Shown here piece by piece: positions 24,241 to 24,720 of a stretch of DNA of 64,000 nt. Position numbers and translations under genes: made by a program. This stretch comes from Sorex araneus. Its lineage: Eukaryota > Chordata > Mammalia > Eulipotyphla > Soricidae. The notes beneath the pieces were generated by a model. It had not been told where the DNA came from and did no database searches. It saw nothing but the letters and a program-made list of their open reading frames with translations. The stretch is taken from contig NC_073307.1 in assembly GCF_027595985.1 (NCBI RefSeq), positions 52,016,088-52,080,087 of the forward strand, in the 5' to 3' direction. Each line of letters begins with the position of its first letter. Position 1 is the first letter of the stretch.

Positions 24241-24720
24241 TTGTATCACTTGTCATCCCGTTGATCTTCGATTTGCTCCAGCAGGCACCAGTAACATCTC
24301 CTTTTGTCCCTGTCATGTGCTAGTGTAGCCCAATGATATCTGCTCGCTCCAGGAACAGGAAGGGCCTCAAATCGTTCATTCAGGATATTGACGAAGAAGT
24401 CTGACCATCTCCTTGGTGGGCAGTCACTCGGTCTTTTGACATCCCCATGGAATCCAGTCGGTAACAGCTCTAGTCCCGCAGTCGTCTCTGAATCACATTA
24501 CGTGTCCGGCCCATCTGATTTTTGATGCCTCAGCAAACGAGACAGTCTCCCTTCTTGTACAACAGAACGGTCCTGCTGGTTTTCCATTGGGATGGAACCC
24601 TGCATTTGGACAGGTAGCATGTGAAGAGCTGAGCCAGTATATTGAGTCCTGACAGCAGATTCTTTAGGTGTTCGGGTCTGACCTTGTCTGGACCGGGTGC
24701 AGACAAAGTTAATAAATACA
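24241..24720 (-). pseudogene. RTE-clade LINE remnant (RT start fused to ORF C-terminus)
   Basis: On the minus strand the first part reads SAPGPDKVRPEHLKNLLSGL ... VPSQWKTSRTVLLYKKGD, the start of a non-LTR reverse transcriptase of the RTE type. An internal deletion (near 24540) then joins to the C-terminal end: ASKIRWAGHVM, a stop, TRAVTDWIP, a 1-nt frameshift, then [35 protein letters not shown] and [16 protein letters not shown] before a TGA. The WAGHVMR and RWSDFF motifs followed by a WxPLEQID-type end are characteristic of RTE/BovB-like ORFs. An approximate TSD (TTAAAGTTCAC at 24230-24240, TTAAAGTTAAC at 24721-24731) suggests the deleted form inserted as such. No poly-A tail is seen. Confidence 0.88.

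What the first reader, a model, noticed from the sequence alone, without database searches (positions are those of the whole stretch)
24241..24302. The 3' third of SINE-B is the coding end of an RTE LINE
Seen directly: the minus-strand RTE remnant ends with codons for [16 protein letters not shown] and a TGA. The same nucleotides (GGCACCAGTAACATCTCC, TTTGCTCCAGC, TGTCATCCCGTTGATC on the plus strand) form the 3' end of every SINE-B here. In frame, SINE-B copies still read WRCYWCPLQQFDEQWDDS (10034-10221) or RYWCPLEQINEQWDDSD (28193-28433). In the RTE fragment the frame continues upstream into [15 protein letters not shown], so the match is not a SINE stuck to a LINE. Known parallel: Bov-tA SINEs share the BovB 3' end and are moved by BovB. 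Inference: SINE-B = tRNA head + RTE 3' tail, mobilised by RTE and not L1.
Basis: partly seen in the sequence, partly recalled or inferred. Interest (0 to 1): 0.8.

Follow-up and report, generated by a model that had tools for sequence, protein, structure and literature searches.

The report
Shrew SINE built from RTE ends
A very common short repeat in this shrew genome is a tRNA-type promoter joined to the two ends of a longer jumping gene (an RTE element related to ones in parasitic nematodes), and its insertion sites suggest it is copied by that element rather than by the usual mammalian L1.

Summary
Of 11 non-shrew RTE proteins read, 9 end at the same residue, so the block passed from LINE to SINE.

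SINE-B positions 65-175 match the RTE 5' UTR at 107 of 111 bases, and 13 of 13 RTE copies checked carry positions 113-172 or more upstream of the endonuclease. SINE-B is the 66-nt head of the known shrew SINE Sor, plus RTE 5' UTR, plus RTE ORF end.

SINE-B has short tandem tail repeats, rarely poly(A) (2 of 64). Its target-site duplications are short and follow a T-run (RTE-like), while those of Sor, with the identical head, begin A-rich (L1-like): 1/25 versus 34/40, p = 3e-11. This supports mobilisation by RTE.

The design is known (AviRTE SINEs, Bov-tA); this is a well-resolved new member with a coding-end tail and a partner switch.

The parts
24241..24305 (-). RTE 3' end: last 17-18 codons of the ORF, TGA stop (24248-24246) and first (ATACAAGTG) tail repeat; the block shared with SINE-B
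24241..24705 (-). RTE remnant, internally deleted (junction near 24552/24553): an RT-domain piece (named from recalled motifs, no family search run) joined to the C-terminal piece
   Evidence: frames; all 39 other scored copies begin to match only at query base 154-161
10043..10220 (-). SINE-B copy (consensus 61-239)
   Evidence: 92.7% identity
14036..14275 (+). SINE-B copy, full length
   Evidence: 87.5%
28194..28429 (+). SINE-B copy, full length
   Evidence: 84.9%
43130..43366 (-). SINE-B copy (4-239)
   Evidence: 88.2%
50865..51000 (-). SINE-B copy, 5'-truncated (92-231)
   Evidence: 89.3%
52036..52252 (+). SINE-B copy with 11-bp target-site duplication CCCACATGGAT
54839..55066 (-). SINE-B copy (14-239)
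   Evidence: 88.2%
57901..58158 (-). SINE-B copy
   Evidence: 81.8%
28074..28171 (.). Broken SINE-B: body piece (-) at 28074-28125 abutting tail piece (+) at 28125-28171
47038..47425 (-). Headless 'long family' element: longer RTE 5' UTR-like sequence joined to the same RTE tail (probably internally deleted RTE)
37405..37609 (+). 5'-truncated long-family element with the same tail
7421..7583 (+). Example of Sor (SINE-A): same 66-nt head, different body, A-tail, TSD beginning AAAA; internal control

Best explanation
SINE-B is a composite SINE. Positions 1-66 are the tRNA-type pol III head of the shrew SINE Sor (consensus identical 66/66). Positions 65-175 come from the 5' UTR of an RTE-clade LINE of this genome, very probably the element known as RTE1_Sar; 176-181 (GTCTCA) look like the same 5' UTR by eye. 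Positions about 182-239 are the very end of that LINE's ORF, followed by its short tandem-repeat tail.

Shown: origin of positions 1-175 and about 182-239; 3' ends at the same place; tandem repeats in place of poly(A); insertion-site signature unlike L1.

Inferred: (1) an RTE RNA or copy with most of its middle deleted (like the long family here) gained the Sor head, perhaps by template switching during reverse transcription; (2) pol III then transcribes the chimera; (3) the RTE protein recognises the RNA at the last ~55 nt plus tail, which in the LINE also encode the C-terminus, and inserts it by target-primed reverse transcription at T-rich sites. Sor, with the same head but an A-tail, stayed with L1.
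For: RTE 3' consensus from 21 of 21 copies reads ...[29 protein letters not shown], then (ATACAAGTG)n, and agreement collapses just after it. Of 11 non-shrew RTE proteins read (chosen from 120 listed), 9 end at the same residue, P0128 runs on, P0145 differs. SINE-B body upstream in 13 of 13 RTE copies checked (12 of the 39 other hits, plus L109): positions 113-172 in all, 65-175 in 7 (one from 71); 107/111 identical to the consensus of those 7. The 5' UTR block is contiguous with endonuclease sequence in 40 of 40 scored hits of 8068 candidates. Head 66/66 identical to Sor. A6+ run after the 3' end: 2 of 64 SINE-B, 63 of 112 Sor; ACAGTG-type repeat: 53 of 64 against 1 of 112. TSDs found in 25 of 64 SINE-B and 40 of 110 Sor (swapped-flank control 0.3% and 0%): A-rich start 1/25 against 34/40, p = 3e-11; TTT at -13..-7 14/25 against 6/40, p = 8e-4; median length 11 against 16. 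The T-run fits the published RTE signature Tn-TA (PMC13295347, sections read). Genome counts: SINE-B junction 20-mer 75,490 exact; RTE junction 18-mer 6,384; reversed controls 0.
Against: The 'TA' half of the Tn-TA signature does not separate the families (T|A at the cut 10/25 against 11/40, p = 0.41; TA within -2..+1 16/25 against 19/40, p = 0.21). TSDs were found in only 25 of 64 SINE-B copies, and a few of the 25 lie in simple sequence (for example L014:7192, L082). The RTE's own TSDs were not measured. The shared block folds no better than shuffles (z = -0.03 and 0.02), so no recognition structure is shown. The overlap at the head/5' UTR joint is only CC, so template switching there is a guess. 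SINE-B's tail differs from the majority RTE tail (CTACAGTG or ATACAGTG versus ATACAAGTG) and at two adjacent codons, so the exact source subfamily is not pinned down. No retrotransposition experiment.
Confidence: 0.92

Rival explanations
1. SINE-B is mobilised by L1 like Sor, and the RTE tail is an inert passenger.
For: The head is identical to that of Sor, which shows L1-type sites in the same genome. The TA half of the RTE signature does not distinguish SINE-B from Sor.
Against: TSDs do not begin with A-runs (1/25 against 34/40) and are shorter; A6+ run in only 2 of 64 copies.
Confidence: 0.03
2. The LINE acquired the SINE's tail (reverse direction), or the window's block is a SINE-B inserted next to an RTE.
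For: A SINE-B piece fused to an RTE endonuclease piece exists at L006, so such fusions occur.
Against: 21 of 21 RTE copies carry the block at the C-terminus, and 9 of 11 non-shrew RTE proteins read end at the same residue. The 5' UTR part of SINE-B is also RTE.
Confidence: 0.02
3. SINE-B arose directly from the 5' UTR-bearing long family (internally deleted RTE) by a further deletion and head capture, not from a full-length RTE.
For: Long-family copies share the body and the tail; by eye, their GTCTCA just before the deletion matches SINE-B positions 176-181 better than the autonomous consensus does.
Against: SINE-B's consensus body is 107/111 identical to the 5' UTR consensus of one autonomous subfamily, while single SINE-B copies are about 73-87% identical to one long-family copy, L003. 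That copy-versus-consensus comparison is not even-handed.
Confidence: 0.35

Closest known systems
SINEs mobilised by AviRTE (ManaSINE1, GymnSINE and others; Suh et al. 2016, PMC4844689, passages read)
   Same: Promoter head plus a bipartite tail from the 5' and 3' ends of an RTE; that RTE is also shared with parasitic nematodes.
   Different: AviRTE SINE tails use the LINE's ~40-bp 3' UTR; here the 3' piece is the protein-coding ORF end, with the stop codon in the first tail repeat. Here the head is that of an existing SINE with L1-type sites.
Bov-tA / Bov-B (ruminants; recalled) and Sauria SINE / Bov-B (squamates; PMC13295347, sections read)
   Same: tRNA SINE sharing the 3' end of an RTE-clade LINE; short tandem-repeat tail; T-run upstream of the TSD.
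   Different: Different RTE lineage; in the paper the TA half is strong, here it is not discriminating.
Sor, the T- SINE of shrews (Borodulina and Kramerov 2001, not seen, cited in PMC11240701, passages; primers in PMC8608897, passage)
   Same: Identical 66-nt head.
   Different: Different body, A-rich tail, L1-type TSDs; its consensus had no hit to the RTE copy L109/L006.
RTE1_Sar, shrew RTE horizontally transferred with strongylid nematodes (Dunemann and Wasmuth 2019, PMC6542046, abstract and sections 6, 9, 10, 11 read)
   Same: Same host, RTE clade; named protein matches are in the same strongylid genera.
   Different: That paper does not mention SINEs (word count 0); identity to the Repbase entry could not be checked.

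Membership tests
RTE-mobilised SINE (general) | 3' end shared with an RTE-clade LINE of the same genome and ending at the same place | tested here: met
   21 of 21 RTE copies examined
RTE-mobilised SINE (general) | Short tandem-repeat tail instead of poly(A) | tested here: met
   ACAGTG-type repeat 53 of 64, A6+ run 2 of 64
RTE-mobilised SINE (general) | T-run about 10 nt upstream of the TSD start | tested here: met
   T 57/100 at -12..-9 against 46/160 in Sor; TTT 14/25 against 6/40
RTE-mobilised SINE (general) | TA at the cleavage site (second half of Tn-TA) | tested here: inconclusive
   T|A 10/25 against 11/40 in Sor, p = 0.41
RTE-mobilised SINE (general) | Pol III head with A and B boxes | tested here: inconclusive
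   By eye only: TAGCACAGCGG and GGTTCGATTCC fit the A- and B-box consensus (motifs recalled); head identical to Sor. No tRNA program was run.
RTE-mobilised SINE (general) | Moved by RTE protein in trans | not testable with these tools
   Needs a cell-based retrotransposition assay
AviRTE-type SINE architecture | Body from the LINE's 5' UTR | tested here: met
   13 of 13 RTE copies checked carry positions 113-172 or more upstream of the endonuclease sequence; 107/111 identity to the consensus of 7
AviRTE-type SINE architecture | 3' piece is the LINE's 3' UTR | tested here: not met
   It is the ORF end; the stop codon is in the first tail repeat. So it works like, but is not, an AviRTE SINE.
Sor SINE family | Sor head | tested here: met
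   66/66
Sor SINE family | Sor body and A-tail | tested here: not met
L1-mobilised SINE | TSD start A-rich, poly(A) | tested here: not met
   1/25; 2/64
RTE1_Sar (source LINE) | Endonuclease and C-terminal protein closest to strongylid nematode RTEs | tested here: met
   226 and 390 proteins at E <= 0.001, best 120 listed each; apart from one Sorex araneus protein (P0204) and unnamed ones, those listed are of strongylid genera
RTE1_Sar (source LINE) | Sequence identity to the Repbase consensus | not testable with these tools
   Repbase not held

The most novel reading that the evidence does not exclude
A LINE that crossed between parasitic nematodes and shrews recombined in the shrew germ line with the promoter of a resident L1-dependent SINE, giving a family of order 10^5 copies. 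One genome then holds two SINE families with the same head served by two different LINE machineries, set only by the 3' end, and the RTE recognition element lies wholly inside protein-coding sequence.
Probability: 0.6. Interest if true: 0.6.

Novelty: new member of a known kind. Interest (0 to 1): 0.5.

Why it matters
If true, a horizontally acquired LINE did more than multiply itself: it founded a second major SINE family in a mammal. Copies of at least 70% body-plus-tail length number 8 in the 64-kb window and 6 in 69 kb of seven arbitrarily placed stretches, which scales to roughly 200,000-300,000 per genome (small counts, wide error). Sor and SINE-B have the same head and different tails, so they are a natural tail-swap experiment on what decides which LINE moves a SINE and where it lands. 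The RTE's presumed recognition region coincides with its protein C-terminus, so LINE protein and SINE RNA evolution can be compared on the same nucleotides.

Tried and rejected
Chance match: rejected (shuffle test). SINE-B inserted beside a LINE: rejected (21 of 21 copies). L1 mobilisation: rejected on TSDs and tails. A stable RNA stem-loop in the shared block: looked for, not found. Viral contig scan for RTE relatives: 8 stretches matched a pattern, none confirmed. First protein search with the window's own C-terminal piece: only two unnamed proteins. Pfam on the endonuclease piece: PF14529 E = 8.5e-4, 19.6 bits against a cut-off of 27.4, so the domain call rests mainly on the nematode protein matches. 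In print: nothing linking a shrew SINE to RTE was seen in the listings of searches of an open-access library, nor in the passages opened; Repbase, SINEBase and subscription papers (for example Gogolevsky et al. 2008) could not be searched, so the family may already have a database entry. Not done: TSDs of the RTE itself, dating, other shrew species.

Full report
OBSERVATION. The minus strand at 24241-24705 holds an RTE remnant whose last frame reads ...[33 protein letters not shown] and a TGA at 24248-24246. A SINE-B copy matches the last 62 nt at 82% (E = 8e-10), and the SINE-B consensus matches it at 91%. The remnant is internally deleted: all 39 other scored RTE copies begin to match only at query base 154-161.

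GENOME. The window lies in a 2.4-Gb assembly of 65 contigs. It carries Sor SINEs whose consensus contains a published shrew primer. A protein named Sorex araneus with this RTE in it lies on a contig of 374,364,821 bases, close to contig C12 here at 374,349,955. Sorex araneus is therefore very likely, but this is inference.

RTE 3' END. Twenty RTE copies from 10 contigs plus the window copy were aligned. All 21 carry the block. The consensus reads [57 protein letters not shown] and then (ATACAAGTG)n, after which agreement collapses. The stop codon lies in the first tail repeat, so there is practically no 3' UTR. SINE-B ends at the same place. Its 3' 61 nt score 47 against this consensus; the best of 2000 shuffles scored 16. 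The 20 copies are ranks 2-21 of 40 scored out of 7403 first-look candidates, so they are biased to copies like the query. Not every copy has an intact frame.

DIRECTION. A 121-aa C-terminal piece of one shrew copy (L099) finds 390 proteins at E <= 0.001. Of the best 120 listed, the named ones are of strongylid genera apart from one Sorex protein. I read 12 of them. Of the 11 that are not shrew (10 named nematode, 1 unnamed), 9 end at the same residue as the shrew ORF, for example P0123 (Nippostrongylus) ...[18 protein letters not shown]; P0128 runs past it and P0145 differs. The block is thus old LINE coding sequence that SINE-B acquired.

THE MIDDLE OF SINE-B. AviRTE SINEs are described with a bipartite tail from the 5' and 3' UTRs of the LINE (PMC4844689, passages). 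This predicted that SINE-B's middle is RTE 5' UTR. An RTE copy with endonuclease frames (L006/L109) has SINE-B positions 113-175 upstream at 59/63 identity. The 740-bp stretch from 5' UTR into the endonuclease sequence is contiguous (query base 28 or less to 726 or more) in 40 of 40 scored hits, the query's own included. Upstream sequence of 12 of the other 39, plus L109, contains the SINE-B body in 13 of 13: positions 113-172 in all, 65-175 in seven (one of these from 71). The consensus of those seven is identical to SINE-B at 107 of 111 positions. The translated endonuclease piece matches 226 proteins; of the 120 listed, the named ones are of strongylid genera.

THE HEAD. Of 141 head hits in the first 286-kb sample, 95 were Sor, 40 SINE-B and 6 unassigned; the two head consensuses are identical over 66 nt. 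They part after GATTCC, and the RTE 5' UTR enters at CCTCC. The overlap is only CC, so template switching is a reasonable guess, not a result.

INSERTION TEST. Target-site duplications were sought in all copies with near-complete ends and flanks in a 340-kb sample. Of this sample 78 kb were loci centred on an exact SINE-B 18-mer, 129 kb were stretches placed to include it, and 133 kb were the window and seven arbitrary stretches. SINE-B: 25 of 64, swapped-flank control 0.3%. Sor: 40 of 110, control 0%. A-rich starts: 1/25 against 34/40 (p = 3e-11). TTT at -13..-7: 14/25 against 6/40 (p = 8e-4). T at -12..-9: 57/100 against 46/160. Median length 11 against 16. T|A at the cut: 10/25 against 11/40, not different. 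A few of the 25 SINE-B sites lie in simple sequence. The published RTE signature is a T-run about ten bases before a TSD starting at TA (PMC13295347); the T-run half is met, the TA half is inconclusive. After the 3' end, an A6+ run occurs in 2 of 64 SINE-B and 63 of 112 Sor, and an ACAGTG-type repeat in 53 of 64 and 1 of 112.

OTHER CARRIERS. Of 86 copies of the tail block with enough upstream sequence in 304 kb, 72 were SINE-B, 3 RTE and 11 other. Seven of the 11 are a headless 'long family' of RTE 5' UTR-like sequence joined to the same tail; it is likely an internally deleted RTE and a possible forerunner. Exact counts genome-wide: SINE-B junction 75,490, RTE junction 6,384, a 5' UTR 38-mer 133; reversed controls 0.

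NEGATIVES. The shared block folds no better than shuffles. RTE's own TSDs were not measured, and there is no functional test. SINE-B's tail differs from the majority RTE tail, so the source subfamily is not fixed.

VERDICT. The fuller anatomy is Sor head + RTE 5' UTR + RTE ORF end. Literature listings showed no paper tying a shrew SINE to RTE; Dunemann and Wasmuth 2019 treat RTE1_Sar without the word SINE. Repbase and SINEBase were out of reach. The design is known, so this is a new member of a known kind.

Noticed in passing
L006:1-830 and L109 (C1:758527-760360): RTE 5' UTR and endonuclease sequence fused directly to a SINE-B 3' end with SINE-B's junction and tail repeat; possible template switch between SINE-B RNA and RTE mRNA, or a later deletion.
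   Followed up: partly
P0204: A predicted Sorex araneus protein, FBXO36 isoform X3, contains RTE C-terminal sequence: possible exonisation or an annotation artefact.
   Followed up: no
window 47038-47425 (-), 37405-37609 (+); L003, L017, L023, L027: Headless long family of probably internally deleted RTE with a TATAAAA-like motif in its 5' part in some copies (for example ACTATAAAACC in L003) and tails of (ATACAGTG)n or (GAT)n.
   Followed up: partly
L109-L113, L117 versus L114-L116, L118-L121: Two RTE 5' UTR types: they share SINE-B positions 113-172, but only the second matches SINE-B from position 64-71 onwards.
   Followed up: partly
window 28074-28171: SINE-B body and tail pieces in opposite orientations meeting at 28125: an inverted, broken copy.
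   Followed up: no
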